Of a stretch of DNA of 64,000 bases, positions 16,869 through 55,625 are shown piece after piece (the stretch's first letter is position 1; every line of letters begins with the position of its first letter). The notes under the pieces were generated by a model. The model made no database searches. It was not told the origin of the DNA and was given only the letters and a program-made list of their open reading frames with translations. Made by a program: the position numbers and the translations under genes. Origin of the DNA: Megalonaias nervosa (taxonomy: Eukaryota > Mollusca > Bivalvia > Unionida > Unionidae); assembly GCA_016617855.1 (NCBI GenBank), contig JAECUM010001903.1, forward strand, positions 1-64,000. Direction: 5' to 3'.

Positions 16869-16952
16869 AGTAGTAGACTAAGGTGATGATCCTAAACCAG
16901 AAAAGGATTCTAGACCAGAGACCCCATCCCCCACCCCAATTTGGAGAGAGGG
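16869..16952 (+). repeat. Left TIR of element 1A
   Basis: About 84 bp are the inverted complement of 49,266-49,349. The first 60 or so bases differ at only three or four positions, and similarity then fades. The shared blocks include GATGATCCTAAACCA and TTCTAGACCAGAGACCCCAT. Confidence 0.85.
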
Positions 16953-24032: not shown

Positions 24033-24037
24033 CCACC
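24033..24037. other. Target-site duplication of element 2A, left copy
   Basis: CCACC abuts the left terminus AGCAGCA and is repeated at 40,543-40,547 right after the terminal TGCTGCT. Confidence 0.8.
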
Positions 24038-24307
24038 AGCAGCACGCAGGGTGAACAGACCACTTGTCTGAATCGTCATTTGTCTAAAACATAACTGTTC
24101 CTACGTAGGCTGAAAAAACAATGTCAATAACTCTAAACCATAGCCTCTAACCGAGATTATTTCCATATAGTTAAAAGCGAATAATAAATCGTTTGGGTTA
24201 GTTATTTTTGTTATTTTATTTTTTACTTTTTGTTTTTATTTTATAGTGCGTTTAGTTTACTCGCCGGGTCACTCAATTTTTGTCGTTCACCCTGCCTGCT
24301 GCTATAA
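24038..24307 (+). repeat. Left TIR of element 2A (270 bp)
   Basis: Position p pairs with 64,580-p in the right TIR over 270 bp, with few mismatches and no net gaps. The TIR itself starts with AGCAGCACGCAGGGTGAAC and ends with its near-complement GTTCACCCTGCCTGCTGCT (24,285-24,303), so each TIR is also a self-inverted unit. It contains AT-rich runs and TTTGGGTTAGTTATTTTTG. Confidence 0.95.
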
Positions 24308-24976
24308 TTAACCAAAAATTTTATCCAGACCTATACGATATCTGGATCTTGGGTCATGTAAATTTATTGTAATAAATCCAAACGGAACAGCTTGTGCTTT
24401 TGAAAAGAAGTTTTTAAATTTAATCATATCCATATCCCCTGAACACCAAGTATAATAAATATTCTGTAAAGTATAATTATCTACTCCATTAAACACGACT
24501 AAAATATTGCAGTTGTCTCTGATCACTTTAGGTATTTGTGTATATCGTTGTGTAACATAAATCACGTCAGTATTTTTATGTCTGCCTCGAGAAAATATTC
24601 TAGCTGGATTTGATTGTCTGTCCAGCATAACGTCATCGTACACCACTAAATTATTAATAAATCCATCTAGGTCATCTACAGATGGGGCTTCATCAATATC
24701 GGTAATAAAGTCAACAACATCATTATCGTCTTCATTCAGCAATTTTGCATTTTCATTAAAATCTTTAAGTACTTCGTAACACTGTTGATCATCTACAGAT
24801 GGCGCTACCAAATATAATCTATCCCACTTCAGCCATATCATTATTAGATTAAGCAATAATTGTGTTTTGCCTGATCCAGATGGGCTTATTATAATCATTC
24901 TAATATAATTTGGTAACTCTGGATGGTGTTTAACTGGTTTCTGTTTTTGTGTCGCAGAAAAGTCAATTATATCCAT
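24308..24976 (-). CDS. FtsK/A32-like genome-packaging ATPase (element 2A)
   Basis: An open 222-codon ORF. Walker A is SPSGSGKTQLLLNL at about residues 31-44, and Walker B is NNLVVYDDVMLD near residue 110. RHKNTDVIYVTQRYTQIP provides the downstream sensor-like motif. It belongs to the packaging ATPase family shared by Polintons, adintoviruses and nucleocytoplasmic large DNA viruses, which pumps DNA into capsids. The usual GPSGSGKT begins with Ser here (Gly in copy 2B), a small deviation. It starts about 12 bp from the divergent zinc-ribbon gene and ends at the TIR edge. Confidence 0.92.
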   Translation of the reverse strand: MDIIDFSATQKQKPVKHHPELPNYIRMIIISPSGSGKTQLLLNLIMIWLKWDRLYLVAPSVDDQQCYEVLKDFNENAKLLNEDDNDVVDFITDIDEAPSVDDLDGFINNLVVYDDVMLDRQSNPARIFSRGRHKNTDVIYVTQRYTQIPKVIRDNCNILVVFNGVDNYTLQNIYYTWCSGDMDMIKFKNFFSKAQAVPFGFITINLHDPRSRYRIGLDKIFG

Positions 24977-24988
24977 ATAATAAATAAC

Positions 24989-25087
24989 ATGGATTTATAT
25001 TGCGTTCGATGTAGAGCATCTACACCCACTGCTGAATTAACAACGATAACAGCGAAGAATAAACGACGTGCTTGTCTCCATGACTAA
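24989..25087 (+). CDS. 32-residue zinc-ribbon-type protein (element 2A)
   Basis: The ORF starts MDLYCVRCRAST, with a CxxC knuckle, and ends RRACLHD. Only one full Cys pair is present, so it may be shortened relative to the 64-residue type-1 homologue. It is conserved at 50,814-50,900 in 2B and as a relic in element 3, always just before PLA2. It overlaps the PLA2 start by 8 bp. Confidence 0.6.
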   Translation: MDLYCVRCRASTPTAELTTITAKNKRRACLHD

Positions 25088-25460
25088 GTCAGGAACAAAG
25101 ACAGGTGGAGATATTGCCGCTTCATTAGGGAAATTACCAGGAACTCCATGGGCTAAATACCTCGGTGAGAAACATCTTCCTGGATATAATTATTGTGGTC
25201 CTGGAACTCGACTTGATATCCGACTTGATGATCAAGATCAACCAAGACCAGGAGAGCATCCAATAAATAAGATTGATGAAGCATGTCATGTTCATGACGT
25301 TGCGTATAAAAGTAAAGATTTACAAAAAAGGCATCTCGCAGATGTAAAATTGATTCATGCGTTAAATTCTATACCTAATAAATCTGTCAGAGAAAAACTC
25401 GCTAGTTTTCTAGTAAAAACTGCCATGAAAGGTAAAATAATGTTAGGGGCTGGTAATTAA
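25080..25460 (+). CDS. PLA2-domain (VP1-like) protein (element 2A)
   Basis: An open ORF of 126 codons from ATG 25,080. LPGYNYCGPGTRLD is the calcium loop, IDEACHVHDVAYKS holds the catalytic His-Asp, and LADVKLIHAL is the following helix. These are features of the parvovirus VP1/phospholipase A2 domain used for endosome escape. The tail KGKIMLGAGN ends 16 bp before the integrase ATG, so the two are probably co-transcribed. An upstream in-frame GTG at 25,068 is possible but overlaps the previous gene more. Confidence 0.9.
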   Translation: MTKSGTKTGGDIAASLGKLPGTPWAKYLGEKHLPGYNYCGPGTRLDIRLDDQDQPRPGEHPINKIDEACHVHDVAYKSKDLQKRHLADVKLIHALNSIPNKSVREKLASFLVKTAMKGKIMLGAGN

Positions 25461-25476
25461 TTATATAACTATTATA

Positions 25477-26457
25477 ATGGAATCCATTTATTATAGCCCA
25501 AGAGGATATTGGAGAGGTAGAGCAGCGATTAGTAAACTTGCTGAAGCAGCAAAAGTCTCACGTTCTGTTGCTGCAGCGTGGTTAGCACGACAGGCAATAT
25601 GGCAAATTTATCTACCATCACCTAAAAAAATTCAGTACGCACATTTTGATGTCAGCACCCCTAATGAAGTTCATCAAGCAGATATTTTATTTTTACCACA
25701 TGACACCATTAAAATTAGTAGACGTTAATCACGCACGTACAAATACGCATTGACTGTCGTTGACGTTGCAAGTAGATATAAAGAAGCTCAACCATTATCA
25801 ACAAAAACAGCATCTGAAGTTGCATCTGCGTTTGAGCGAATTTATCAACGTGGTGGTCTACGATGGCCACAATTATTACAAGTTGATCCTGGCAAAGAAT
25901 TTCTTGGTGCAGTATTATCGTTGATGAATAAACATAACGTTAAAATCAGACGAGGACATACTGAAATTCATCGTGATCAGGCAATCGTTGAACGACTTAA
26001 TCGAACACTTGCTGAGCGGTTATTTGGATACCAATATGCAAAGGAAATATCTACTGACTTTAAGTCCGGTGAGAGATCTCGTGAATGGGTTGCAAGGTTA
26101 CCAAGTGTGATAGCTGCGTTAAATAACGAAATTACTCGTTCAACTTCCATGAAACCTTCTAATGCGATTACAAAAAAATATATGCCAATACAACGCCGTG
26201 AATCTTTCTCTCAACCAGTATTAGGTAATGTAACTGTATGATATTTATATGAACCTGGTGAACTTGAAGGTGGTAAAAAAAGAGCAACTCGTCCTATCTG
26301 GAGTGTGACTACACATACAATTTCTAGCGTGGTTAGATCCACGGGTAGACCTGCAATCTACAGACTGGATTCTACTGCTCCTCAACGTGGATTTGTGCGT
26401 GAACAATTACAAGTAATTCCTAAAGACACACAATTACCACCACATACAATTACATAA
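25477..26457 (+). pseudogene. Polinton integrase with two in-frame stops (element 2A)
   Basis: A single 327-codon frame is broken only by TAA at 25,726-25,728 (Gln in copy 2B) and TGA at 26,239-26,241 (Arg in 2B). The N-terminus has SPRGYWRGRAAISKL. The catalytic residues lie in LTVVDVASRYKE (Asp), LLQVDPGKEF (Asp) and DQAIVERLNRTLAE (Glu). The C-terminal domain carries PIWSVTTH and RPAIYRLDS and no chromodomain, unlike the type-1 integrase. It would insert the element into DNA. It is convergent with the Pol-like/helicase gene. Confidence 0.92.
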
Positions 26458-29400
26458 CCAGAACCTCTACGTCGATTACATTCAAGTCAGGTCAGCATCA
26501 CATTATCACGTGTATGACCAAGATCACTATTAATTCTGTCTACGGTAAATTGTCTTGGATTATTATTCGAATATTGCCACAACATATTACAGTTACAGCT
26601 TGCACAATGATTATTCTGTCGTTGTTTTAGTGTTATAATAAATTCAGTATCAATATCAAAGTCACGATTATTTTTTTTGTCACATTGCTTATAACTAGAT
26701 AGTTTTTTTCTTATTACGTCATTACTAACAGTTTGATCATTATTTTCTGTAAAATTCATAATAACCCTATGTAGTTGATATATTCTTCTAACTCGAGAAA
26801 CTGCGAGATAAACTAAATTTGACCATTCGATCCGATCATCTATAATCCAGATATTTGTATCAGAAATAGTTAATCCCTGTGACGAATGAATCGTTATAGC
26901 GTATCCTAACGTCCACGGTGATTTATTCATACTCAGTGCATTCTCAACAACATTAATATCGACTAAAATAATATCATTCAAGACAAGATTCTGTATTCCA
27001 CCACCAGGAATTTCAGCTTCAATATTCTGTCGTCGAGTATCTGCTCGGCGATAACATAATGGTACAGGTAGATCTGAAAACTTTTCTTTATGTAACAGAA
27101 ATAATTTCTCCTGTAGTTCATCACGAACTATCTTTCTACTTGCAACTATTAAATCAGCGGGATTCCATAAACTCAGAAAATCATTCATTGTAGTCTCTGG
27201 AATTACTCCTCGCATTATTTCACATTGTATTTTATCTGTCTGTAGTCTGATTAATCTTTTAAGTTCTTTCAGCGGTTCATCAATAGCTCTTTGGTCATCA
27301 TTTATTTCTTCATAATAATCTACGTTATTCTTCAGCCATTCATGTGGAGACTGTCCAATAAAGGGTGGTGGTTGACCATGATCACCACACATTATTACAG
27401 CAGTATTCTTTGTCAATAACCAATCAAGAAATGTTTTTAATATTTCTAACGACACCGTGTCTACCTCGTCCCATATAATATATTTAGGTATATATTTCTC
27501 GCCCATTCGTTCAGGAGTCCATGTGTCTCCACACCATCTAAAGAAACTATGATATGTACATGATTTTACTCCTCGTTCTTTTATTTCCATGGCTAATTTA
27601 TGTGTCGGTGTCAAAACAATTATATCTGAATTATTATTCATGAATAATTTAATCACACGTGTTGTTTTGCCTGAACCACCGCATCCGTTAAGATAAACAG
27701 TTTTATGTCTAGCCACAGGATGATATACAGATGGTGCTGATGACTTTGATGCTTGATTATTATTTTTGTAATATATTTCCTTAATTTCAACGTCGGCAGA
27801 TTCAGAATAACTAAGTATATTTTCTTATTTTGTTCTCCATGATCCCCATTCACCATTACCACGTAGCGGTTTTAACAAATCTGTGTAATTTTTATTTATG
27901 TAGAACGAATCTGTAGCAACTCTGACAGCGTAACAAGAAAATCTGTTTATCATAGACAGTAGATTTATCGAAACATATGCCAACATCGATGATCTTAAAT
28001 GAGCAAAATTGCGGTGAGTCACCATCAAGATAGCTCACAATTGTACCTAGTTTGGTTCCGTCTGATAAATAAGCATTACATCGGCTTATAAATGTGTTTT
28101 TCGTCGTTGTATCAGCGATTATAAACTCGAGTTCAGCATCGTCCATAATCAATCTTGTACAGTGTCTTTTATGATCATATGCTCCTCCTTGAGTAAATTT
28201 ACCAATTATCTTTCTACCAAGATCTTTTGCAAGTTTCTCATTATGCTCATGTCTGCATTTACGTATATTATTAGTAATTTTAATAATGTCATCTTCATTA
28301 AGATCAGGAAATTCTTTCCTGGCATCATCAAAATTAAATCTATTTGGTTCTGGTAACCAAACTTGCTTTTGTAACCGATACGATATAATTGCTTCACTCA
28401 CCTTCAATAATGTTAAAATTCCTACATCAAGCATATATCGCAATAGTATTGGAACCAAACATTTTTCTAAAAAATGTCTTCCAAACTAAGCATAAGTAAT
28501 CGGATGGAGATTTTCTGCAAACTCAAATGATTCTACATGAGCAAATCCGGTTAAACCAAAATCTGGTAAATGTCCGTTTATCGCAACTCTGGTCATCTCA
28601 TGGGATGGATGTCCAAATCTCTTAAAGTATTGAGAACATTCTCCGTATCCAAGAAAACTCCCAGGATAACATGCTACAATATCAATTGAGATAACGTCAT
28701 TATACTTATATTTAGTATTCCACAATCCTCCGTGTCCATAGTCTACACAGCTTTTATGGATATCTTCAAGAAATTCCGATCGTGTTGGTTTACATAAATT
28801 GAGCAAAGTGAGCAGCAACTGATGGAACTGTAAAACAATTATTTAAGAATTCTCCAACCTTGGTATCGCCTGAAGTATATTTTAATGCTAGTTTTTTCAT
28901 TTCCTCGTGTACGGTAAATATCACCATTAGGCCGTATAAACTGACCATAATAATCATATTCTGAACTTTGAAATAACCAAACAGATACAGGATCGTTTTA
29001 AGGATATTTTTGATTTATCAAAAATATGACCATCATAAAATTTAACCGTTCTGTCTAGTGGAAATATTGTTACAGCATTAATCCATGCATGTGCATTATG
29101 ATCAATGATATCTATCGAAGCTCCTCTTGATTCATATTTCGATTTATATAAAATCTCTCCGGTTAACGTCTTCACTGTTATTGGAAATTTTAATAGCTTT
29201 CCCAACTCAGCAACATCTTTAATAGATGCTCCAGTATCTTTAACTGATTCTGCCCACGTATTTATTTTTTACGTCGTAAATCTGTTAAACCATTACCAGG
29301 TATCGCATTTATGAATGTTCTGTAACTCGTTCAGCTACACAGTTTATTCTTGACTCTGACAGTCTCATCGGTTTGAGATCCCCAACGTCAGGTTTATTAT

Positions 29401-29872
29401 TCAGCGGATATATTGCATATACAACCGCAGTAACGGGATATGTACGTTCATAATACGGTTTATCAACACCGGTCAATATTCCTGGTTTGGAATTTTTGTC
29501 TAATAAAACAATATTATTTCCCGATTGCACTCGTACTGGATCACGCTTGTCACGAATAATCCAAGTATCATCGTCTGTCCTTACAATAAATTTTATCAAA
29601 ATAAAATATTTTTGATCATCAAGGTGATTAATAATTGCTTTTCCTCGTTTGTGATTCATTATAGTATCGACAATATTTCCGATTCTGAATGTTGACCATA
29701 CATGAGCAGCACCACTATTACGAAATTCCTTCTTTGCTTCACGGATACGTTCGGTTATATCCTCATTTGTTAAAGCTATATCTTGCATCAAAGTACTAAA
29801 TTTATATTCTGATAGTCTGTCAAGATCAAATCTAGGTCTATAAGGTTCAACTTTGGATAATTTATTATCCAT
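26440..29872 (-). pseudogene. Divergent PolB-like region fused to SF1 helicase and HNH (element 2A)
   Basis: A minus-strand gene of about 1,140 codons in several frames. N-terminal part: YGHGGLWNTKYKYND, then a motif-A-like DIVACYPGSFLG, a motif-B-like GRKIIGKFTQGG and a motif-C-like VRVATDSFYI. C-terminal part: SF1 helicase with Walker A NGCGGSGKTTRVIKLF, YIIWDEVDT, MCGDHGQPPPF and ITIHSSQGLTI. The end is an HNH-like zinc site (CASCNCNML, then FTVDRINSDLGHTRDNVML) cut by a TGA at 26,485-26,487. It takes the place of PolB. Frameshifts cluster between 27,830 and 29,310. The polymerase assignment is tentative (about 0.7); the helicase is firm. Confidence 0.8.
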
Positions 29873-29916
29873 TATAATTAAGACAAATATTTAAATTAAA
29901 TTTTAGTATATATATA

Positions 29917-30237
29917 ATGATTGAAACAAAGAATAAATGTATTTGGCTCAAAATTGGATATACTTCTCCTTGTAACAAAGCATGCGTGAATGAATTCTGC
30001 TACTACCATATGCAAAGCGTTAAAAATGGGAGTCTGGGACCAAAACCGTGTGTGCAATGTGGTGTTGGAGTCAGAGGAAAAACTCAGTTATGTGTAAAAT
30101 GCGGCGGTAAAAAATATAGAGAATTAAAACGATATTATGACAAAAAAGATAATATTTTGACATCGTCAGGTAAATCTCCTATAAAAACCGTAGAAGATTA
30201 TCTGGACAGATTTGAAAACAATGATTTAAACAAATAA
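29917..30237 (+). CDS. Cys-rich zinc-binding protein (element 2A)
   Basis: An intact 106-codon ORF. Cys spacing suggests two zinc sites: an N-terminal C-C-C-C-H cluster (CNKACVNEFCYYHM) and a ribbon CVQCG...CVKCGGKKYRE. The C-terminal third is charged. I do not recognise a named family. It is divergent from the Pol-like gene by 44 bp with a TATATATATAA run before the ATG, and may be a small regulator or DNA-binding protein. Confidence 0.65.
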   Translation: MIETKNKCIWLKIGYTSPCNKACVNEFCYYHMQSVKNGSLGPKPCVQCGVGVRGKTQLCVKCGGKKYRELKRYYDKKDNILTSSGKSPIKTVEDYLDRFENNDLNK

Positions 30238-30252
30238 TATTATATATATAAA

Positions 30253-30753
30253 TGGAGCAAAACGAATTTGTGACACATCTAGTATGTACAAATTACGAAG
30301 CATTCCGAGATGGTGTAATCAGACACTGTCGATTAAAAAAGACCAGTTGGTAATCTTGATAAATTTGGTTATCTCAAATTCCGTGCTGGGAAAAATAAAT
30401 GTTATTTCTCACATATATTCATATTCGAATGTTTTCATGGAGTCGTTAAAAATGGACTTGTAGTTGATCACATTGATGGAGATCCCAAAAATAATCATTT
30501 ATTTAACCTGCAAACTATCACACAGAGTCAGAAGTCTGCACGTGGAAATACAGGAAGGTGTAAAAAGTTTGCAAGAAGATCTATTAAATCCGTAAATACA
30601 GAAACAGGCCAAGAAATAACTTTTCCATCAATAAATGCAGTTGCAAAACATTTTGGCACACATCCACAATCGGTACAATTTGTCGTAAATAAAACATACA
30701 AATCTGCATATTCAATAAAATATGATCAGTCGATAATATTTGAATATTTTTAA
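30253..30753 (+). pseudogene. HNH endonuclease, frameshifted (element 2A)
   Basis: The ORF begins MEQNEFVTHLVCTNYEAF and stops after 33 codons. A one-base shift restores a frame with HIFIFECFHG, NGLVVDHIDGDPKNNH and QTITQSQKS (the HNH_3 site), and a NUMOD1-like ITFPSINAVAKHFG. It is a single-module version of the type-1 HNH proteins, lacking their degenerate first unit. It starts 15 bp after the Cys-rich gene. Confidence 0.8.
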
Positions 30754-30813
30754 CTCTGTACTCTTAATAAATAAATATTGTTTTTAATACTGTATATAGT
30801 TTGACTCTGTCAA

Positions 30814-31212
30814 TTATTTCCAATCAATCATGACACCTTCACTCTCAGTGTCATTGACAGAATCAAATAACATAATTTTTCTTAGTTGCATTACACGATT
30901 GTCCACAATCTCCTTTTTCTCGTATTCAAGAGACAATTCAGTTCTTATTTTTTCGATTGAACGTGCAAGAGGCGCAAACAGTTTTACCTGTTTGCCATTT
31001 ACCATTGCCAAGGATTCTAACATAGACTGATAAATTGATTTCACGAATCTATGATTAGAAGGTAATGTGTATTTATTTTAAAATTTTCGTTGTTTTAATA
31101 TTTCAAAATCGCATAATATTTTCTCAGGATCGAGATTATCAGAGAGATTTATTTCGTCATGTTTTAATTTTTTAATAGCGGAGATAATAGCATTAATATT
31201 TTCTTGGTTCAT
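30814..31212 (-). pseudogene. Unknown 133-codon protein with one internal stop (element 2A)
   Basis: From ATG 31,212 (MNQENINAIISAIKKL) one frame runs to 30,814 with a single TAA near 31,080 after QRKF. The distal part contains MLESLAMVNGKQVKLFAPLA. The protein is helical-looking and charged. No family is recognised. It faces the non-coding gap on one side and the HNH gene convergently on the other. Confidence 0.55.
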
Positions 31213-31354
31213 TATATAATAATTATTTCTTTAAAATAATAATCAGTTTTGAATAATTCTAAATCATATTATAAAAATTGTAGTCCCCATAACCCTATGT
31301 GAACCCCTAGATTGTCAAACAACATTCTAGCAGGCTCAGAAGGTCAGAGAGGAC

Positions 31355-31720
31355 TGTTTTTTGATTATGATTATATACATATGATTATGATTATATACAT
31401 ATGATTATGATTATATACATATGATTGTATGATCTTGATTATATATACATATGATTTTGATTCTATTTTTGCAGACGGCACAAACACATAATTGTATGAT
31501 CATGATTATATATACATATGATTTTGATTCTATTTTTTGCAGACGGCGCAAACATATAATTGTATGATTGTATGATTATGATTATATACATATGATTATG
31601 ACGGCACAAAACACAGAATCCTAATTACAGTAGCGTATTTACAGCAATTATATTTACAGTAGCGTATTTACAGCAATTATATTTACAGTAGCGTATTTAC
31701 AGTAACGTATTTACATATAT
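31355..31720. repeat. Cluster of tandem repeats
   Basis: Four 19-20-bp units of GATTATGATTATATACATAT (31,363-31,440) are followed by two longer units containing GCAGACGGCACAAACA. Then come three 29-bp units of AGTAGCGTATTTACAGCAAT (31,620-31,710). No coding function is seen. Confidence 0.9.
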
Positions 31721-31794
31721 TTAGATATTTACAGGGAGGCACAAACACATAAATGTATGATTCTATGAATATGAATATATACAAATGGTGATGA

Positions 31795-32065
31795 CGGGGG
31801 AATCGTGTCTACGTCCAACAGATTTTGTACACTCTCCCCCCATGCAAACCCCGGGGAGTGCAAAAGTTCACCCACCATATGGTTACATGGTGGGAAAGCT
31901 GTATTATATTTCTGTTGGGTTTCGTACCCCCAATTATGAATAGCAACCGTCGCCGAATGCAAGATAATATATCTTTAGCATTTTTGGAGACTCGAACACA
32001 CAGAGAATCTTCAGAACTTTGATCTACGTCCAAACGCCTTAACACCTCGGCCACCGCTCTCTTAT
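31795..32065 (-). mobile_element. tRNA-Leu-like SINE inside element 2A
   Basis: Read on the minus strand, it has A box GGTGGCCGAGGTGTTAAG and B-box-like TGTTCGAGTCTCC, then a body with AATTGGGGGTACG and GGGGTTTGCATGGGGG and an end at TCTGTTGGACGTAG. The body matches the SINE at 17,625-17,880, so two copies of one family sit in the two nested elements. Confidence 0.75.
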
Positions 32066-32507
32066 GAATATACAGTTAAATTTAAGCATATAAACTATTT
32101 GCACTGTCTCACATGTGATTACTCTGGACTTGTATTTACTAATAGAATAAAATCAGTTATTGTAGAACTGTAGCGTGAATTTACTTCAATTTTTCAAACA
32201 TAATTCATAAAATAATCGCATATTACATTTTCTGTATGAGTTATCGTTCGTTAGGTCAAAATACATGTGTTAGAGCTAAAAATAACTCTGATTTGTATCA
32301 ACGCACTTGCATATAAACCGACGTGAATTTAAGGTTATCAGAGTCAAAAGATGCATCAATATCCCTCTCTGTTACAAATTGCTGCTTCACTAACAACTAA
32401 TTGCTTACAGAGAACAAAGAAATCACTAAATAATTAACCAAAACAAGATATATTCGTTGTCTATAAATCAAACGTAGAAGTAAGGGAGATAATCGTTTAA
32501 TTTGCTC

Positions 32508-32570
<63 letters not shown>

Positions 32571-32900
32571 GAGTTATCTCGCTTCATTATATGTACAATT
32601 GCTTTAATCATAGGAATTGATTATTATTCAGATTTTAATGATTTTGATTAGAAAAAAAAGAAATTTATGACCATTTCATTAACAATAGTACCATTTAGCC
32701 CATCAGATAAAGAAATATGTAACTATTTCATTAATCAGAGTACCTATTTACCGTTCAGAAAAAGAAATTTCTAACTATTTCATGAATCAGAGTATATATT
32801 TACCCATCAGATTATGAAAAATCAGTAAAAAAAATATATTATTTCAGAATCAGATTATTTTTTTCCCCTGATTATATCAGGAAATATTTACTCGGACGTT
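32066..32900. other. Non-coding part of element 2A with (GA)n
   Basis: No gene is recognised. A perfect AG run occupies 32,511-32,568. Between 32,690 and 32,870, three imperfect direct repeats share AAGAAATTT and AACTATTTCAT with spacing near 60 bp. Confidence 0.7.
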
Positions 32901-34373
32901 CTACGAGCGTACATATAGATTAATATGCAGTAATTCCTCTCTTAAATCCAAAATGTATCCTGTCTGGTCAGTACGTTTGAAATTTATTCTTGACAATAAT
33001 GGATTATGTACACGTAGATAAACTGGATTAATTGGCTCAGATACAATTAACCACCCTGGAGGCACTTGAGGACTAAATGAATATAATATATACCCTTGTT
33101 GAGCTTGAGTGGATTTTTCAAGATCTACTTGATAGCTGTCATCAATTACGTCGCATACTAAATTGACTGCGATCGTTGATGTTATATTAACAATACCAGG
33201 TGAGATATGGCGGCCTCCACCATGTGGATCATTATTATATTTAAGAATGGTTGGTGGCGGGATTAATTTTTTCCATGAGTTACATATTCTTTTAAAATGT
33301 TCATCAATAAGATCATTAACTGATTTCTTTAGCTCTTCAGAGTTAAATCCAGGAATTACAAACTTTGGCCGCTGTTCTTCTGTAATTTTATAAAATTTAA
33401 GAAATACTGTTTTAAATAAACGTTTATAACTTACACGCTGAATAGGACCATCTTCATTAACCATGTAAGTATTAAGAAATCTATCTGCTGGTGCGTTTAA
33501 TGTTTTTTCTCTGTCAACTATAGCCTTATTTACATATTCTAAGTCTGATGCAACTTGATTCAAATGTATTGTTTCAATTATTTGATTTTTTAAGTCATCG
33601 TCATAAACAGTGTTGATGCTGAAAAATAAATTTCTTAGATCATTCAGTACTCGTTCATGTTTAGATTTAATTGGTCTTGATTTTGAGTTAATTTCTTCAA
33701 CGTTAATTGTTGATATTCTTGTTGTACCTTTACCCGGAACGAAATCTATAAAATGATTATAATTTTTATAACCACGATAAGCACCCGGACTCTCTATATA
33801 TGGATAAGTTTTTCGATATTCTGGAAGTTTTATAAATTTTTCAACATTTATAACGAAATCAGATCGTTTTGGTGCAGGTGGTCCTTGATAAACTGGTTCA
33901 AATTCAGGCCATCCTAACACTGATCTAATCGAACTTTGATAAATATCTACAGAATAATCAGGGGAATTTATTTCAATCACCGCTGATAATGTTGGTTCGT
34001 AAACAGTAATTGCTATCATTAATTCTTTTCCTGTAATAGATTTAATTCTACGTTGAAACTCATCATTAATCTGTTCTATTTGATAACTGCCCGTTGGAAT
34101 AGCAACAACTTGCCAATCAGGAGTTCCATCAGGCTTATTCTTATTAGCGAATACCAGCGAATTATTTGGCTGTATTCCACCAAATGGATTTGATCTAATA
34201 TTTGGCCAGCTATAATAAGCTCGCAATTGTGCTAGGGCTATTTCCTTTGCTGGAATTGCGGTTGGAAAGTTAACGTTAAACTCAGGATTGGTCGAACTTA
34301 ATGAGATCATCGTAGTTTTTGACGGGGTTGTATTAACGACGATCTGCTGAAGTAGATCTCTTGAGTCAGTCAT
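32901..34373 (-). CDS. Penton (single jelly-roll) protein with large insertion (element 2A)
   Basis: An intact 490-codon ORF. The C-terminal block (VNLVCDVIDDS, YILYSFSPQVPPGWLI, and INFKRTDQTGYILDLREE) matches the type-1 penton at 42,905-43,655 and the general Polinton penton pattern. The N-terminal part (LSSTNPEFNVNFP, IALAQLRAYYSWPNI) corresponds to the start of that family. Between about residues 170 and 385 lies some 215 residues absent from the type-1 protein. Pentons cap the capsid vertices and carry the fibre. It overlaps the upstream membrane-protein gene by 8 bp. Confidence 0.82.
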   Translation of the reverse strand: MTDSRDLLQQIVVNTTPSKTTMISLSSTNPEFNVNFPTAIPAKEIALAQLRAYYSWPNIRSNPFGGIQPNNSLVFANKNKPDGTPDWQVVAIPTGSYQIEQINDEFQRRIKSITGKELMIAITVYEPTLSAVIEINSPDYSVDIYQSSIRSVLGWPEFEPVYQGPPAPKRSDFVINVEKFIKLPEYRKTYPYIESPGAYRGYKNYNHFIDFVPGKGTTRISTINVEEINSKSRPIKSKHERVLNDLRNLFFSINTVYDDDLKNQIIETIHLNQVASDLEYVNKAIVDREKTLNAPADRFLNTYMVNEDGPIQRVSYKRLFKTVFLKFYKITEEQRPKFVIPGFNSEELKKSVNDLIDEHFKRICNSWKKLIPPPTILKYNNDPHGGGRHISPGIVNITSTIAVNLVCDVIDDSYQVDLEKSTQAQQGYILYSFSPQVPPGWLIVSEPINPVYLRVHNPLLSRINFKRTDQTGYILDLREELLHINLYVRS

Positions 34374-34887
34374 TATTATTATTGTTATTATTTAATTCGC
34401 CTTGGTTATTGGGAGTGACTTTGTCTCTAAATGCTTCATCGTAGGTTTTCATTATCGTTGCGAACTCCTCATCAGATATTTTACCATCACTGAGGTAGAA
34501 CGAAATATTGGACGATAATGTAGAATAGGCTGTTGTTGCTGTATGTAATTTTATTATATACTCGTGTAATTTAGTATTTGTACATGCGAATATCTTTTTA
34601 GCTATAATACTAAGAATACCTGCGATAGTCGTTGAAGTTGAAACGATAATTGTTACAACTGCAGGCGCCGTCATTGTTATTGTTGATAATAATAATCCGA
34701 CCCCAGCAACAATAGCGGAAACTGAGTAAACAATTATATCAATGACAACCATACGTCTGCGATATTTTTTTACTTTTACTGTATAATCGTCGATTATATT
34801 TTTTAATTCAGTCTGACATTTACACACTTGATTATATCTGTGACGCTGAACGTCGATGTAGGACTGAGGTCCTTGGTTTTGATCCAT
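34366..34887 (-). CDS. Two-pass membrane protein (element 2A)
   Basis: An intact 173-codon ORF. Two hydrophobic segments (VVIDIIVYSVSAIVAGVGLL and APAVVTIIVSTSTTIAGILS) lie at about residues 47-66 and 73-92. A C-terminal LSDGKISDEEFATIM resembles an EF-hand-like turn seen in other Polinton membrane proteins, and the tail is Asn-rich. A possible virion membrane protein. A broken counterpart in element 1A lies near 48,500-48,920. Confidence 0.7.
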   Translation of the reverse strand: MDQNQGPQSYIDVQRHRYNQVCKCQTELKNIIDDYTVKVKKYRRRMVVIDIIVYSVSAIVAGVGLLLSTITMTAPAVVTIIVSTSTTIAGILSIIAKKIFACTNTKLHEYIIKLHTATTAYSTLSSNISFYLSDGKISDEEFATIMKTYDEAFRDKVTPNNQGELNNNNNNND

Positions 34888-34911
34888 TATACAATGACGT
34901 TAAGTAATTAA

Positions 34912-35979
34912 TTAAGGAGTTTCAGCTACGAATTCCAGATACCACCAGTAACGTCTCGGAGGCATTTCCGTTGATATCAGCGTAAATATTTCTTTAATGT
35001 TTTTATTTAGCATCACCAGTAGAGGATTATGATATACATTCGGTGATGATGAAGTGGCAGCAGTAATTTCTAAACCACGCATAGACAGTCTGTATAAACC
35101 AGTTACTTCTGCGGTATGTTCGAGAGTGTTATTTTGTGGTGTCCATGTTGATGATCCGGACGCTACTGTATGCACGATATTGTTAATTTGTCCGTGTGGA
35201 ATTTTAATCAGATTAGTTTTTTGGACAATATTAGGTATTCCACTGACAATATCATTGAGTTTCATGTTAACGTCGGCTAGTTTTATGTCAACGGTGGGTT
35301 GTTCCCCCAAAAATTCTTTAATGGTTTTGTTTATATTTCTACGAAAATTTAAGAACGTTTCTACATGTCTAGAAAAAGTATTATTGAGTGTAGTCATTTC
35401 GTCATTGATTGTTTTTAGTGAAGTTGTCATAGGAATTTCCTTATCATCGACGTATTTCTTCGTTGCAGCATCAAAATCAGATTCTGGTGTTCTAAGATTA
35501 TTAATACCATTATTATTCATGTTGAGAAATGCACGCATTATACCGCCGTTGACTAATACGTACTTAGATTCTTGATCGTCGACATATTTCTTTGTTGCAG
35601 CGCCTGTATCTGCGGCTGGGTTTCCAAGGTCTATAGTTTTATTTCGGTTCATGATAATGTGACCCGTGAATGAATCACCAGCTTTCTTAATATAATCGTT
35701 GACTGACGTACCGGAATCTTGTATTTTACCCTGATCAGTAAAAGTAACGATATTATCAACAACCACATTAGGAATTCGTATAAGTACATATGGCAGTTGT
35801 ATATTACTAGTTTTTAATCGTCCTTCTTTATACTGAAAAACAACTACTTCATTTTGATCAACACTGGTTATGTTTAATAAATTATCTATCTCATTTCTAA
35901 GTTGATCGAGAGTTGCGTATTTAGATAAATCAACCTTCTTTGGATCTCTACTAGAGGATCTTCCATAAATATCCACCAT
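34912..35979 (-). CDS. Trimeric fibre-like protein (element 2A)
   Basis: An intact 355-codon ORF. The shaft contains repeats of the phage tail-fibre type: KKAGDSFTGHIIMN, GAATKKYVDDQ, GIMRAFLNMNNNGINNL and DAATKKYVDDK (residues about 90-180), followed by a coiled-coil-like region. The C-terminus (GLYRLSMRGLEI and onward) looks like a beta-sandwich head of the C1q/TNF kind, by pattern only. It is likely the receptor-binding spike on the penton. It is expressed with penton and membrane protein (24-bp gap). Confidence 0.78.
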   Translation of the reverse strand: MVDIYGRSSSRDPKKVDLSKYATLDQLRNEIDNLLNITSVDQNEVVVFQYKEGRLKTSNIQLPYVLIRIPNVVVDNIVTFTDQGKIQDSGTSVNDYIKKAGDSFTGHIIMNRNKTIDLGNPAADTGAATKKYVDDQESKYVLVNGGIMRAFLNMNNNGINNLRTPESDFDAATKKYVDDKEIPMTTSLKTINDEMTTLNNTFSRHVETFLNFRRNINKTIKEFLGEQPTVDIKLADVNMKLNDIVSGIPNIVQKTNLIKIPHGQINNIVHTVASGSSTWTPQNNTLEHTAEVTGLYRLSMRGLEITAATSSSPNVYHNPLLVMLNKNIKEIFTLISTEMPPRRYWWYLEFVAETP

Positions 35980-35985
35980 TATTAT

Positions 35986-36424
35986 TTATTGACATCTGTT
36001 TAAATGAGACAACGTGGTATATTCATGCACAATTTTGTGAGGTGGTTCTGTTGATTTTGATACAGCATCAAGTACGTTAAATACTTCTCGACCACATATT
36101 GGTGGATCCGTTAATGTTTGTGTTGGTAACGTTGAATACCAGATTGGAATACTTTGCATGCTGCTAACATAATGCAGAAATTCTTTTGGTGGTGCTAGTC
36201 CATATGAATCAAAATAAATAATTCCACGTGGATCAATTACATATCCAACCCAGTGTGTGCCTGGTCCAGAGTTTTTGTCGAGATTAATAATACCTGATTC
36301 AATATTGTTTGTTTTTTTGGTAATTGATCACGCATAAAAACACCTCTGAAATTTTTTTTTTTAATTTTTTAGCGGCATCGAGTAAATCAAAATTGGACAT
36401 AGGCGATAACAGTAAACTGTCCAT
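35986..36424 (-). pseudogene. Adenain-like cysteine protease, frameshifted (element 2A)
   Basis: ATG 36,424 starts MDSLLLSPMSNFDLLDAAKK. A poly-A run shifts the frame, after which FRGVFMRDQLP, SGPGTHWVGYV (His), IIYFDSYGLAPPKEFL (Asp), TLPTQTLTD (Gln) and PPICGREVFN (Cys) follow in two frames. The active-site set is complete, so only the frame is damaged. It overlaps the end of the minor-capsid ORF in another frame. Confidence 0.82.
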
Positions 36425-36981
36425 GGTAATCTCAGGCCCTTTCCGTACCATGAATGTGGGGTCCCTGGCAATCTTAGACCGCCACCGTAGGCTGGGCCTG
36501 ATAATCTTAGACGGCCCGGCTGTGGCACGTTTGGTGGTCTTAGACGTCTTCCGTGTTGTTTTGCCAGTGATCGTTTTTTTAAGCTTTCTGTGTGCATGAT
36601 TCCCTGACCCGTTGCTTTCTTTAATGCCATTCCAGCAGCAGTTCCAACAGCGCCTAATGCAGCTGCTTTTGCAACAGCTGGGGCTGCAGCGGCTATTAAT
36701 GCTGGTATAGCTGCAAGAAGTGGAAATATACCACCCGTCTTAGCGATATCTTTAATGGCACCCGCAGAAAGATTAAGTTTTATACCTTTATTTGATTTTT
36801 TGGCTTCATTGAAGTTTCTGAACTGATGCTCGGTCAACGACAATTTATTTGCACCGCTCATCTGTTCTTTCTTTAGCGATATTTTTATTCCACAGTTATT
36901 TTTTGATGCTGATTGTAGCCTTTTGATCTGACCAGGAGTCAGACTAACACTAACGTGATTATATGACATTATAATATTCAT
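36361..36981 (-). CDS. Minor capsid / membrane-active protein (element 2A)
   Basis: A 206-codon ORF. The N-terminal half has paired motifs (SVSLTPGQIKRLQSAS and LSLTEHQFRNFNEAKK) each followed by a GIK(I/L) strand. Then come KTGGIFPLLAAIPALIAAAA, an amphipathic/hydrophobic helix, and a C-terminal run of G-RLRL/GLRLP repeats. The same layout is found in the type-1 proteins at 40,558-40,927 and 63,609-64,000. Its role as a pVI-like cement or membrane-active protein is inferred. The last 20 residues may be out of the true frame. Confidence 0.72.
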   Translation of the reverse strand: MNIIMSYNHVSVSLTPGQIKRLQSASKNNCGIKISLKKEQMSGANKLSLTEHQFRNFNEAKKSNKGIKLNLSAGAIKDIAKTGGIFPLLAAIPALIAAAAPAVAKAAALGAVGTAAGMALKKATGQGIMHTESLKKRSLAKQHGRRLRPPNVPQPGRLRLSGPAYGGGLRLPGTPHSWYGKGLRLPWTVYCYRLCPILIYSMPLKN

Positions 36982-36992
36982 AAACGATCTAA

Positions 36993-38372
36993 TTACATGT
37001 TTTCTACTGGAGCATCAACAACTCTCATTCGTCCACCAAGTAACATTGATTTATCGCTGAGTATAACAGCGATTGCTCTGTAATTGGCAACAACTCCAAT
37101 ATCTCTATTAACATGAGCTCGAAAATGTATATCGACTACAGATTGTCTGGTTAAATCTAAATGTTCAAGCGAAAAGTAATAAATTGGATATAAGGTTGTA
37201 AAATCTAACTGTGATATTTGTAAACCAGTATCAACATTTTGATCAGGTCCCATGAACGTCATTAATCGATGATGTGCACTTGCTACATGATTTTGATCGA
37301 AATTCAACAATATATCCTCGGATGGTTCTTGATGTCCATTTATCCTTAAAGAAACTTCAGAAACACCAAGTTTGTCAAATATCATAATACTTTCATCTTG
37401 ATCGTTTACTCGTGCAACATTTTGAAGCGCAATAAATATATGTCTTAGTGCAGAAACACCTTGCTGTGACGCTATTTACCATGTAAATAAACCATTATTA
37501 TTACTCTGGATAGCATTTGTGGTCGTTGTCAACCATGATAACATTGATTTACCACCTTGACTCATAAAAGATAGTAACCGATCTTCTTCAGATATTGTTG
37601 GAGTCATCACCGGCATCCACAATGAAAGCTTCGTAAGAATTACTCTACCAGCATCAACTGCACCAGGTCGCCAGATTGCATCATTATCAGTGGCTTTTCG
37701 CACAAGTACAACTGTGTGCTGAGCTCCAAAAATGACTTTTCTGACATTTCTGCAAAATCCAAAAATATGTGACAGTGGAATTGAACATGAAAATGCTCTT
37801 CTATCACCTTTTAACATTGATTTACGTACTGCAAATCCTAAGTTAAAATTTGCATTCATTGATATTACTGCGGGAGTTTCTGCGTCTCCTGCGGCATTTC
37901 TTACATTACCAATAGTTACGTTTCTACTTTCTGGAAAATCAGTTGTATCCTTCGCAAACATCATTGATGGGCCAGCCAATCTTGAATAATCGTCGCTGTA
38001 TCTTGCTAAAACCAATATTGTTGTAGCAACATCAACGTCGTTCTGAATAGATTCAATATTTTTTCCGTCAATCATGTACGTAGCACTGTCAAATAACGCC
38101 ATAATACCATTATTAACAAAACGAACAATAACATTAGCTCCATATGCTACTGGTAATGCAGGATTAGCGATATTTAAAATTTCACCTTCTACCTCAATAA
38201 ATGCCTCAGCGGGTAAGAAATATCTGCTTGTATCATGAACTTGCAGTTCATTTCGTTCACGCTGATCTGGAATTCGTGCATCATAAGAATAATATTGACA
38301 ATCACACACAGACTCATCTTTGAGTACTGGTGCATCCATGTCGAATGCGGGGTCAGATATGCGCTTGAACAT
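36993..38372 (-). pseudogene. Major capsid protein, one in-frame stop (element 2A)
   Basis: One 460-codon frame runs from 38,372 to 36,993 with a single TAA at 37,476-37,478, where the type-1 MCP has Arg (YTWRI). Shared blocks with the type-1 MCP are FLPAEAFIEVEGEI, SIPLSHIFGFCRNVRKVIFG and LSLWMPVMTPT. The C-terminal domain has LDFTTLYPIYYFSLE. Length and synteny fit the double jelly-roll MCP of Polintons. It lies upstream of the minor-capsid gene with an 11-bp gap. Confidence 0.88.
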
Positions 38373-38442
38373 CTTTATTATATTTGCTATCGTCTAAAAC
38401 GAAGACCACTTCCTGCTATCAGACTAGCGGTTATATTTTTTG

Positions 38443-38834: not shown

Positions 38835-38853
38835 TTTATCATAGTAATTTTAT

Positions 38854-40272: not shown

Positions 40273-40542
40273 TTATAGCAGCAGGCAGGGTGAACGACAA
40301 AAATTGAGTGACCCGGCGAGTAAACTAAACGCACTATAAAATAAAAACAAAAAGTAAAAAATAAAATAACAAAAATAACTAACCCAAACGATTTATTATT
40401 CGTTTTTAACTATATGGAAATAATCTCGGTTAGAGGCTTTGGTTTAGAGTTATTGACATTGTTTGTTCAGCCTACGTAGGAACAGTTATGTTTTAGACAA
40501 ATGACGATTCAGACAAGTGGTCTGTTCACCCTGCCTGCTGCT
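40273..40542 (-). repeat. Right TIR of element 2A (270 bp)
   Basis: Inverted complement of 24,038-24,307. The outer end is GTTCACCCTGCCTGCTGCT (40,524-40,542). The inner end, AGCAGCAGGCAGGGTGAAC (40,277-40,295), is complementary to the outer end. Confidence 0.95.
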
Positions 40543-51336: not shown

Positions 51337-52304
51337 TATAGTCCATTTATTATTCCCCGAGAGGATATTGGAAGGGCAAAGCAGCGATTAGTAAACTCGC
51401 TGAAACTACAAAGGTTTCACGTGCTGTTGCTGCAGCGTGGTTAGCACGACAAGCAATATGGCAAATTTATCTACCACCACCTAAAAAAAATTCAGTATGC
51501 ACATTTTGATGTCAGCGTTCCCAATGAAGTTCATCAAGCAGATATTTTATTTTTACCACATGATACTATTAAAACTGGTAGATGTCAATCACGCACATAC
51601 AAATACGCACTAACTGTCGTTGATGTTGCAAGTAGATATAAAGAAGCAGAACCACTGTCAACAAAGACAGCAACTGAGGTTGCATCTGCGTTTGAGCGAA
51701 TTTATCAACGTGGTGGTCAACGATGGCCACGGTTGGTACAGGTTGATCCTGGCAAAGAATGTCTTGGTGCAGTATCATCGTTGATGAAAAAACATAATGT
51801 CAAAATCAGACGAGAACACACCAAAATTCATCGTAATCAGGCAATCGTTGAAAGATTTAATCGAACACTTGCTGAGCGGTTATTTGGATACCAGTATGTG
51901 AAGGAAATAATTTATACAGATACAAGATCTCGCGAATGGGTTGCAAGATTACCAAGTGTGACAGCTGCGTTAAATAATGAAATTACTCGTGCAACTTCTA
52001 TGAAACCTTCTAATGCAATCATAAAAAATATATACCAATACAACGTGAATCTTCCTCTCAACCAGTATTAGGTAATGTGACTGTAAGGTATTTATATGAA
52101 CCTGGTGATCTTGAAGGTGGTAAAAAAAGACCAACTGATCCTATCTGGAGTGTGACCACACATAAAATTTCTAGCGTGATAAGATCCACTGGTAGACCTG
52201 CAATCTACAGACTGGATTCTACTGCTCCTCAGCGTGGATTTGTACGTGAACAATTACAAATAATTCCTAAAGACACACAATTACCACCGCGTTCACTTTT
52301 GTAA
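51337..52304 (+). pseudogene. Polinton integrase, broken (element 2B)
   Basis: The ATG and second codon of 2A have become ATA-TAG here. An extra A in the poly-A run near 51,490 shifts the frame, and another shift occurs near 52,030. The catalytic blocks are still legible: VVDVASRYKEAEPL, VQVDPGKECLG and NQAIVERFNRTLAE, and the C-terminal PIWSVTTHKISSV. It aligns with the 2A integrase throughout. Confidence 0.9.
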
Positions 52305-52319
52305 ATTGGAACCCCGACG

Positions 52320-55300
52320 TCGATTGCATTCAAGACAGGTCAGCATCACATTTATCACGTGCATGACCAAGATCACTATTAATTCTATCCACGGTAAATT
52401 GTTTTGGATTATTACTCGAATATGCCCATAGCATATTACAGTTACAACTTGCACAATGATTATTCTGTCGTTGTTTAAGCGTTATAATATATTCAACATC
52501 AATATCAAAATCACGATTATTTTTTTGTCACATTACTTATAACCAAATAGTTTTTTTCTTATTATGCTAATAACTTCAGTGTCACTGATAGTTTGATTAT
52601 TATTTTCTGTGGTGTCTATGATAACTCTGTGTAGCTGAGATATTCTCCTGACTCTAGATACTGCTAGGTAGACTAAATTTGACCACTCGATTCTGTCATC
52701 GACAATCCAGATATTTGTATCAGTAATAGTTAGTCCTTGTGACGAGTGGATCGTTATAGCATATCCTAGCTTCCACGGTGAGTTATTCATGTTCAACGCG
52801 CTCTCAACAACATCAACATCAACCAAAACAATATCATTCAGCACAAGATTTTGTTTTTCATTTGTTCCTGGAATTTCAACTTCAATATTCTGTCGTCGAG
52901 TATCTGCTGGGCGATAAAAAAATGGTACAGGTAACGTTGGAAATCTTTCCTTGTGACGCAGGAATAATTTTTCTTGTAATTCATCAGGAACTATTTTTCT
53001 ACTTGCAACTATCAAATCATTTGGTCTGCACAAATTCCAAAAATCATTTACAGGAGTTTCCGGAATTATTTCACGCATTATCTCACATTGTATTCTATCT
53101 GGCTGTAGTCTGACTAATCTTTAAATTCTTGTAGAGATTCATCAATAGCTCTATGATCATCATTTATTTCTTCATAATAATCCACAAACGATTTTAACCA
53201 CTCGTGCGGAGATTGACCGACGAAAGGTGGTGGTTGACTATGATCGCCGCACATAATTATCGCAGCATTTTTTGTCAATAACCAATCAAGAAATATTTTT
53301 AATGTTTCTAACGAGACTGTACAAATCTCATCCCAGATGATGATTTTGGGAATATATTTCTCACCCATTCGCTCAGGTGTCCACGTATCTCCACACCATC
53401 TGAAGAAACTATGATATGTACATGATTTTACTCCTCGTTGTTTTATTTGTCTTGCTAGTCTGTGTGTAGGTGTCAGCACAATCATATCAACGGAGTTTGA
53501 AGAACTCTGCCGAAATAATTCAATCGCACGTGTTGTTTTACCAGATCCTCCAGGGCCACTAAGATAAATAGGTTTATGTCTAGCCACGGGATCAAATACA
53601 GATGGCAACGTTGATGCTGGTATTTGATTCTCGTCGCCGTAGTATGGCTTCGCGATATCAACGTCGGCCGATTCAGAATAATCGAGTATACTTTCTTGTT
53701 TTATTCGCCACGATCCCCATTCGCTGCTACCGAGTAACGGTTTTACCAAATCGAAATATTTTTTATCCACATAAAATGAATCCATAGCAACTCTAACAGC
53801 GTAACAAGGAAATCTATTTATCATCGATAATAAATTTATAGAAACGTAAGCGAGCATAGAAGATCTCAAGTGAGTAAATCGCGGTGACTCACCGTCGATA
53901 TAACTCACGACTGTACCTAGTTTGGTTCCATCTGACAAATAAGCATTGCTTCTGCTTATAAATGTTCCTTTGTTCGTTGCATCAATAATTATAAAATCTA
54001 ACTCAGCATCATCCATGATCAATCTTGTACAATGCCGTTTATGATCATACGAACCACCTTGAGTAAATTTAACAATTATTTTCCTACCGAGATCTTTTGC
54101 AACTTTATTTTCATAATCGATCGTATCCCAATCTGTTAACGGCGAATGTTGTTTTTGTTGTGGTAGCCAAACTTGTTTCTGCGAATGATATGATATAATA
54201 GCTTCACTTACGCTCAACGACACTAAAATTCCAGCACCAAGCATGTATCGTAATAGCACCGTTGGAACCCAATGTTTATCTGAGAAATGTCTACCAAACC
54301 ACGCATAAACGATCGGATGAAGATTATTACACAAGCAAATCCAGTTAAATCAAAATCAGGTAATAGTCCATTTATCGCAACTCTCGTCATTTCGTGTATG
54401 GGATGTCCGAATCTTTTGAAATATTCAGAACACTCTCCGTATCCAAGAAAACTTCCAGGATATAACTTTACGATGATCGTATTTGGTATTCCATAATCCG
54501 CCATGCCCATATTCGACACAACTACGTTGAACATCTTCAAGAAATTCTGATCGTGTCGGCGACCATGAATTTTTCTTTTGAGCAAAGTGAGCCGCAACTG
54601 ATGGAACTGTAAAACAATTATTTAGTAATTGTTCAACTTCGACGTTGTCAGGATTATATTTCAGTTCAAGATTTTTCATTTCTTCATGGAGAGATTCTCC
54701 ACGGTAAATATCTCCGTTAGGTTTTACAAATTGATCGTAATATGCGGATTCTGAACTCTGAAATAACCAAACAGACACAGGGTCGCTCTTACTGATATCA
54801 CCGATAGCATCGAATATATAATCGTCATAAAATCTGACTGTCCCATCTCGTGGAAATATTGTTACAGCATCAGTCCATGCATGTGCATTATGATCAATGA
54901 TTGTTATTGGAGCTCCATTGTTTGTATATTTCTGTTTGAACAAAATCTCTCCGGTCAGTGTTTTTACTGTTATTGGAAATTTTAATTTCTTTTCTAGCTT
55001 AGCAACGTCACTGATAGATGCTTCGATATCTCTAACTGTTTCTGCCCACTCGTTTATTTTTGTGCGTCTTATATCTGTTAAATCGTTTCCCCGTACTGCT
55101 TTTGAGAAATGTTCCATGACACGCTCAGCTACACAATTTATTCTTGAAATTTTCATTGGTTTGAGATTATCAACGCTGGGTTTATTATTTAGCGGATATA
55201 TTGCATATATAACTGCCGTGACAGGATATTCTCGTTCATAATATGGTTTATCAATACCGGTAAGCACACCTGGTTTTGATTGTTTATTTAATGTAACAGT

Positions 55301-55397
55301 ATTATTTCCAGTATGAAGTCGTACAGGTTCGTGTTTGTCACGAATAATCCAAGTATCATCGTCTGTCTGAACAATAAATTTTACTAGAATAATGTAT
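52320..55397 (-). pseudogene. PolB-like region, SF1 helicase and HNH fusion, 5'-truncated (element 2B)
   Basis: Large open pieces (280, 406 and 181 codons) confirm the fusion seen in 2A. The 406-codon ORF runs through the motif-B-like GRKIIVKFTQGG, motif-C-like VRVAMDSFYV, Walker A GPGGSGKTTRAIELF, IIIWDEICT and MCGDHSQPPPF without a break, so polymerase-like and helicase parts share one frame. ITIHSSQGLTI and the HNH-like VDRINSDLGH follow after breaks. The 5' end is removed by element 1B at 55,397. Confidence 0.85.
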
Positions 55398-55625
55398 AGT
55401 AGTACGGTAATAGGCTGGTTCTAGCTCCAGACCCTCTCCACCCTCCAAACAAATATAAATTACCCCATCAGAGACCCTAAAAAAATCCCACCCCAAAACG
55501 ACTTTTCCAAAATCAGTAGGCTGGTTCTAGCTCAAATATAATCTAAGACTTTTACTCACCCTCCAAATAAATCTTGGAGACCCTCAAATAAAAATATAAA
55601 TTACATCTGGGAGCCCTACCAGCCT
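55398..55625. repeat. Left terminal repeat region of element 1B
   Basis: Contains two copies of AGGCTGGTTCTAGCTC (55,413 and 55,522) and two CACCCTCCAAA blocks with AAATATAAATTA, so an internal near-tandem repeat of about 110 bp. TTCTAG and CCAGA...CCC echo the 1A TIR. Confidence 0.7.

What the first reader, a model, noticed from the sequence alone, without database searches (positions are those of the whole stretch)
26440..29872. Divergent PolB-like region, SF1 helicase and HNH nuclease apparently in one gene
Type-2 elements have no conventional PolB. In its place is a gene with motif-like DIVACYPGS, GRKIIGKFTQGG and (A/M)-D-S, followed in the same 406-codon frame of 2B (53,114-54,334) by SF1 Walker and GDHxQPPP motifs and finally an HNH-like zinc site. 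Presence in two independent copies argues against chimeric assembly. I know of no described Polinton replication protein with this layout.
Basis: partly seen in the sequence, partly recalled or inferred. Interest (0 to 1): 0.87.

Follow-up and report, generated by a model that had tools for sequence, protein, structure and literature searches.

The report
Polymerase-helicase-nuclease fusion in mussel Polintons
Virus-like elements in a freshwater mussel genome carry one long replication gene that joins a polymerase-like part, a DNA-unwinding motor and a DNA-cutting domain; this fusion is already known from viruses of single-celled organisms, but I found no report of it in an animal.

Summary
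The observation largely holds. Both window copies are frame-broken, but elsewhere in the same genome the gene is one open frame: 1149 aa (L009), 1161 aa (L085), and L084 open from about residue 28 on. Order: N-terminal region, vOTU-like Cys/His pair, family-B palm motifs A, B and C with no room for an exonuclease, RecD/Dda-type SF1 helicase, HNH. Constraint is even: dN/dS 0.20 overall, palm 0.16, helicase 0.16. Scored matches in the genome: 101 for palm-helicase, 150 for HNH, both lower bounds. Element 24038-40542 has 99%-complementary TIRs, a 5-bp flanking repeat, integrase, ATPase, PLA2, a double-jelly-roll protein and no conventional PolB match.

The layout is not new in kind: it is that of 'Tlr1-like helicases' (pPolB-S1H fusions) of polinton-like viruses and transpovirons, some ending in HNH (PMC11071308). 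The expected exonuclease is absent. New, as far as my searches reach, is the animal host: mitochondrial gene order matches freshwater mussels. Weak point: palm and vOTU rest on motifs, spacing and order; profile comparisons were not significant and both AlphaFold jobs failed.

The parts
24038..24307 (.). left terminal inverted repeat of element 2A (270 nt)
   Evidence: arms 24038-24307 / 40273-40542, 99% complementary
40273..40542 (.). right terminal inverted repeat of element 2A
   Evidence: CCACC directly outside both ends (24033-24037 and 40543-40547), a likely 5-bp target-site duplication
26385..29890 (-). copy 2A of the fused replication gene, frame-broken
   Evidence: tblastn with naturally open copies L009 and L085
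29312..29890 (-). 2A N-terminal frame (193 aa), ends shortly after the vOTU-like Cys helix
28957..29268 (-). 2A frame with vOTU-like His (IIDHNAHAW)
28489..28842 (-). 2A frame with GGLW and palm motif A (DIVACYPGS)
27895..28485 (-). 2A frame with palm motif B-like GRKIIGKFTQGG
27828..28034 (-). 2A frame with palm motif C (ATDS)
26490..27824 (-). 2A frame (445 aa) with SF1 helicase and HNH domain together
   Evidence: AAA_19 7.7e-13; PHROG 325 2.5e-18; PHROG 3322 1.8e-7
52232..55420 (-). copy 2B of the same gene, frame-broken
54428..55420 (-). 2B frame (331 aa): N-terminal region and vOTU-like Cys/His pair
53117..54349 (-). 2B frame (411 aa): palm motifs B and C, Walker A, GDHSQPPP
52536..53120 (-). 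2B frame: C-terminal helicase half (UvrD_C_2 0.016, below cut-off)
52333..52527 (-). 2B frame: HNH domain, out of frame with the helicase in this copy
24308..24994 (-). packaging ATPase of element 2A
   Evidence: its homologue in L009 hits Pox_A32 1.2e-13; this copy itself not scanned
25050..25460 (+). phospholipase A2-like protein
   Evidence: homologue in L009 hits PF08398 1.1e-12; this copy itself not scanned
25447..26457 (+). RVE integrase, convergent with the fused gene
   Evidence: (rve 2.3e-6 in 25729-26241, below the curated cut-off)
30337..30753 (+). free-standing HNH_3 homing-endonuclease-like ORF
   Evidence: PF13392 3.5e-11
37476..38372 (-). double-jelly-roll capsid-like protein of element 2A
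   Evidence: PF21738 3.5e-9, over cut-off

Best explanation
It is the replication gene of a polinton-like provirus: a single protein of about 1150 aa of the Tlr1-like (pPolB-S1H) layout, made of an N-terminal region (perhaps a priming domain), a vOTU-like cysteine protease, an exonuclease-less protein-primed family-B palm, a RecD/Dda-type SF1 helicase and a C-terminal HNH nuclease. Proposed working: the N-terminal region primes synthesis at the terminal inverted repeats and is cut free by the vOTU; the palm extends the strand while the fused helicase opens the duplex; HNH nicks or cuts DNA. Shown: one gene, domain order, helicase and HNH family matches, conserved motif residues, purifying selection in every part. 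Inferred: palm and vOTU folds, priming, cleavage, polymerase activity and what HNH cuts.
Confidence: 0.78

Rival explanations
1. The palm is there but catalytically dead. It serves as a scaffold or DNA-binding part, the protein works as a helicase-nuclease, and synthesis is done by host polymerases.
For: Motif C lacks the first of the two metal-binding Asp residues in the 7 rows of the alignment that cover it, in both window copies and in L084 and L085; the 2016 view of this family was an inactivated polymerase, later revised (title seen).
Against: Motif A Asp (15 of 15) and the second Asp of motif C (16 of 16) are kept in the copies read, and the palm is as constrained as the helicase. PMC11071308 notes active polymerases lacking the same Asp.
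Confidence: 0.13
2. The region before Walker A is an unrelated fold; the PolB-like motifs are coincidence, and the gene is a helicase-HNH with a novel N-terminal half.
For: No significant profile match to pPolB, no relevant Pfam hit, failed models.
Against: Motif triple in order in 4 of 100,000 shuffles (post hoc); phi29 block 3 of 1000; the whole order vOTU-palm-S1H-HNH equals a published family; no conventional PolB match elsewhere in the element.
Confidence: 0.08
3. Chimeric assembly, or separate genes that run together only in damaged copies.
For: Both window copies are broken, and an A-rich run at the helicase-HNH junction differs from L009 by a frame-shifting amount in 7 of 15 copies compared; 93 of 149 HNH frames are 130 aa or shorter (lengths).
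Against: Full-length single frames L009 and L085, and a nearly full one in L084, on three contigs and in two clades about 77-78% identical; 101 scored places with palm and helicase collinear.
Confidence: 0.01

Closest known systems
Tlr1-like helicases (pPolB-S1H fusions) of polinton-like viruses and transpovirons (PMC11071308)
   Same: Order vOTU, exo-less palm with motif C missing its first Asp, C-terminal SF1 helicase, then a C-terminal GIY-YIG or HNH nuclease; in the Tlr1 element also combined with an RVE integrase.
   Different: Here in a freshwater mussel; the hosts named for this fusion in the passages I read are ciliate and algal viruses and giant-virus-associated transpovirons. No sequence relative turned up in seven scans of viral contigs. 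The fold of the N-terminal domain is unknown.
Conventional Polinton/Maverick pPolB (fragment in the same window, 56237-59508)
   Same: Replication gene of elements with RVE integrase and capsid-type genes; similar vOTU Cys-His spacing.
   Different: The conventional protein has an exonuclease region and no helicase; type 2 has no room for the exonuclease and carries S1H and HNH.
OmPLV helicase SF1-pPolB of Oxyrrhis marina (PMC12721341)
   Same: SF1 helicase fused to pPolB in a polinton-like virus.
   Different: Reverse order (helicase first), complete exonuclease, about 1500 aa; no HNH end mentioned in the passages read.
Cryptophyte PLV helicases with nuclease domains (PMC12220804)
   Same: SF1 helicase fused to GIY-YIG, and helicase domains fused to HNH homing endonucleases.
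   Different: HNH there is N-terminal to the helicase; here it is C-terminal.

Membership tests
Tlr1-like helicase (pPolB-S1H) | palm motifs A, B and C, first Asp of motif C missing | tested here: met
   DMVACYP 414-420, KIIGKF 552-557, ATDS 650-653 in L009; conservation
Tlr1-like helicase (pPolB-S1H) | palm fold with TPR1 and TPR2 | tested here: inconclusive
   AlphaFold of a window piece failed, pLDDT 32.8; hhalign and HMM not significant
Tlr1-like helicase (pPolB-S1H) | no exonuclease domain | tested here: met
   147 residues from vOTU-type His267 to D414, against about 414 codons in the conventional pPolB (positions); judged from length, not from a fold
Tlr1-like helicase (pPolB-S1H) | vOTU with Cys and His next to the palm | tested here: inconclusive
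   Cys183 16 of 16 copies; His267 (HAW) in 7 of 7 rows of A1 that cover it; fold not shown, pLDDT 36.6
Tlr1-like helicase (pPolB-S1H) | SF1 helicase C-terminal to the palm in the same protein | tested here: met
Tlr1-like helicase (pPolB-S1H) | C-terminal GIY-YIG or HNH nuclease (in some members) | tested here: met
   PHROG 1035 2.6e-9 at residues 1072-1145; Pfam HNH below cut-off
Tlr1-like helicase (pPolB-S1H) | helicase or palm groups with known members in a tree | not tested
   no named member sequence was held; protein database off; viral-contig scans with pieces of this element or its motifs found no relative (checked in 45, 92, 93)
canonical Polinton/Maverick | RVE integrase, DJR capsid protein, packaging ATPase, TIRs and target duplication | tested here: met
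   rve score is below Pfam's cut-off, the ATPase was scanned in the L009 homologue, and the duplication is 5 bp (6 bp is usual, recalled)
canonical Polinton/Maverick | pPolB with exonuclease | tested here: not met
   no conventional pPolB match in 24038-40542
OmPLV-type SF1-pPolB | helicase N-terminal to a complete pPolB | tested here: not met
   helicase lies after motif C

The most novel reading that the evidence does not exclude
Polinton-like proviruses of an animal replicate with an exonuclease-less protein-primed polymerase-helicase, and the A-rich run joining helicase and HNH is a programmed slippage site, so that the element makes the enzyme both with and without its nuclease. The run differs from L009 by a frame-shifting amount in 7 of 15 copies compared; in two of these (L010, L011) the gene is open up to that point.
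Probability: 0.08. Interest if true: 0.65.

Novelty: new member of a known kind. Interest (0 to 1): 0.45.

Why it matters
If right, pPolB-S1H replication proteins, described from protist viruses and giant-virus plasmids, also occur in animal elements, side by side with conventional Polintons in one genome. That bears on whether polinton-like viruses and animal Polintons share hosts and exchange modules, and it offers a large set of copies in two clades for testing whether the Asp-less palm is an active polymerase. It may also help explain virus-like insertions that seem to lack a polymerase but carry a helicase fused to an unknown domain, as noted for protists in PMC10120064 (passage).

Tried and rejected
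Palm homology by profile: hhalign against own pPolBs and against phi29, PRD1, Cp-1 and own pPolB with column shuffles, HMM with shuffles, Smith-Waterman, free alignment: only the phi29 block was above noise, and only motif C fell into register. AlphaFold of window pieces (results 86, 88) unusable, so no fold search was run. Relatives in viral contigs: seven scans (41 was made with the conventional polymerase) and one of genome contigs; the only loci returned were chance matches. Chimera and separate genes rejected. Exonuclease expectation rejected. At the helicase-HNH junction, slippage, mutation and assembly error could not be told apart; of the two other seven-A runs of L009 one was shifted in 3 and one in 1 of 15 copies.

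Full report
What is in the window. On the minus strand between about 29890 and 26385 lies a frame-broken gene (copy 2A), and a second, collinear copy (2B) lies at about 55420-52232. In 2A the separate open frames carry, in order, an N-terminal region with a Cys helix, IIDHNAHAW, DIVACYPGS, GRKIIGKFTQGG, ATDS, and then one 445-aa frame with Walker A, GDHGQPPP and an HNH site. In 2B one 411-aa frame carries KIIVKF, AMDS, Walker A and GDHSQPPP; its HNH lies in a different frame and its motif A is damaged. The finding's statement that HNH is in 2B's 406-codon frame is therefore wrong, while its statement about order is right.

One gene. The genome (2.19 Gb, 54,709 contigs) gave 101 scored matches to the 2B frame, the query's own place included, at 87% identity or more; 49 of the 101 have no stop inside, by my count of the listing. 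It gave 150 scored matches to the HNH piece. Both lists are capped, so these are lower bounds; 2A itself is absent from the first. Of the 149 HNH matches other than the query's own, 6 lie in frames of 900 aa or more, 27 in 300-899, 23 in 131-299 and 93 in 130 aa or less (lengths, binned). I read five of those six. L009 (1149 aa) and L085 (1161 aa from its first Met) span everything; L084 is open from about residue 28 to the end; the long frames of L086 and L087 start inside the protein. L009 is closer to 2B; L085 is closer to 2A; L084 and L085 are 78% and 77% identical to L009.

Domains. In L009 numbering: vOTU-like Cys183 and His267; motif A 414-420 preceded by GGLW; motif B-like KIIGKF 552-557; motif C ATDS 650-653; Walker A from 727; GDHGQPPP from 827; HNH with two CxxC pairs, D1119, H1127 and N1131. 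The helicase matches PHROG exonuclease V (5.4e-13) and Dda-like (7e-12) families, and the C-terminus matches endonuclease VII/HNH families (2.6e-9). A profile of the family finds 5ftb and 5fhd in the PDB at 1.3e-5 and 3.2e-5, named TPR domain protein and ATP-dependent DNA helicase (recalled to be bacterial Pif1), and entries named PIF1 at 0.064 or worse. Pfam's own HNH model stays below its cut-off.

Selection. Over 105 pairs of 15 copies, dN/dS is 0.20 overall, 0.18 N-terminal, 0.27 vOTU region, 0.25 linker, 0.16 palm, 0.16 helicase and, over 78 pairs, 0.27 HNH (2A left out of this set). 2A against 2B gives 0.19 over 914 codons, and the open pair L009-L085 gives 0.18. In one pair the HNH ratio was above 1 (2B-L009, 1 synonymous and 6 other changes over 63 codons). 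The palm has been under much the same constraint as the helicase.

The element. Arms 24038-24307 and 40273-40542 are 99% complementary and flanked by CCACC on both sides, five bases where six are usual for Polintons (recalled). Inside are a packaging ATPase, PLA2, RVE integrase, the fused gene, a free-standing HNH_3 ORF and a double-jelly-roll protein, and no conventional pPolB match. A conventional Polinton lies at 55.8-64 kb of the window, with remnants of others elsewhere, and a Pfam PolB search of the genome scored 75 candidates, many in open frames of 1366-1369 aa (not counted).

Host. COX1 sits twice in contig C2306 (30,567 bases), 16,026 bases apart. Translated with the invertebrate code (genes other than COX1 recognised from recall of their proteins; rRNAs and atp8 not identified), the order is cox1-cox2-nad3-nad2-(gap)-cob-nad5-nad1-nad6-nad4-nad4L-(gap)-atp6-cox3. 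It agrees with the order PMC3866145 gives for most unionoids, with rRNAs and atp8 falling in the gaps (passages read). The host is most likely a freshwater mussel.

What is known. PMC11071308 (passages, section 10 and figure legends read) describes Tlr1-like helicases of PLVs and transpovirons as pPolB-S1H fusions with vOTU, an exo-less palm with altered motif C, S1H, and C-terminal GIY-YIG or HNH. PMC12721341 (abstract and passages) describes the reverse fusion in a dinoflagellate. PMC12220804 (passages) describes helicase-nuclease fusions in cryptophyte PLVs. Krupovic 2016 (Virus Evolution) was not held; only its title was seen. I saw no report of this fusion in an animal in the listings of eight paper searches or the passages read. 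Those listings show at most 25 papers each from openly licensed PMC papers only. A legend of PMC3671162 names Hydra among the species of two trees, one of them of this helicase, and I could not tell which. So absence from print is not proven.

Mechanism. Most likely the protein primes at the element's ends through its N-terminal region, frees itself by vOTU cleavage, copies the DNA with the palm and unwinds with the fused helicase. HNH may be a resident homing nuclease or may process replication products. All activities are inferred, the priming and cleavage steps by analogy with PMC11071308.

Noticed in passing
genome loci L002-L015, 2A, 2B; residue about 1073 in L009 numbering: An A-rich run between helicase and HNH varies in length and differs from L009 by a frame-shifting amount in 7 of 15 copies, including two open up to that point (L010, L011); the two other seven-A runs are shifted in 3 and 1 of 15. 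Mutation hotspot, assembly error or programmed slippage.
   Followed up: partly
window 56237-59508: Conventional Polinton pPolB fragment with an endonuclease VII-like domain (in 57215-58633, Pfam 8.2e-5, just below cut-off) and motif C apparently reading DTYS in place of DTDS.
   Followed up: partly
genome, loci L017-L024: Another polymerase family (PF03175, about 1367 aa) with 75 scored candidates, many in open frames of the same length: perhaps recently active conventional elements.
   Followed up: no
window 15486-16875 and 49464-49793: Remnants of that polymerase family, beside a pair of 84-nt inverted repeats (16868-16951 / 49267-49350).
   Followed up: no
window 40974-41756: A double-jelly-roll protein (PF21738 2.2e-22) just outside the TIRs of element 2A, so belonging to another, nested or neighbouring element.
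   Followed up: no
window 34912-35979: ORF with PHROG matches to phage head decoration (2.9e-8) and tail fibre proteins (8.4e-8); possibly a fibre-like protein of element 2A, though repetitive composition may cause the match.
   Followed up: no
window 39407-39610: Short G/T-rich direct repeats, 6 overlapping copies of a 66-nt family, within ORF 39099-39701.
   Followed up: no
G000 contig C2306: COX1 occurs twice, 16,026 bases apart, in a 30,567-base contig: a mitochondrial genome of about 16.0 kb present nearly twice; gene order as in freshwater mussels.
   Followed up: yes
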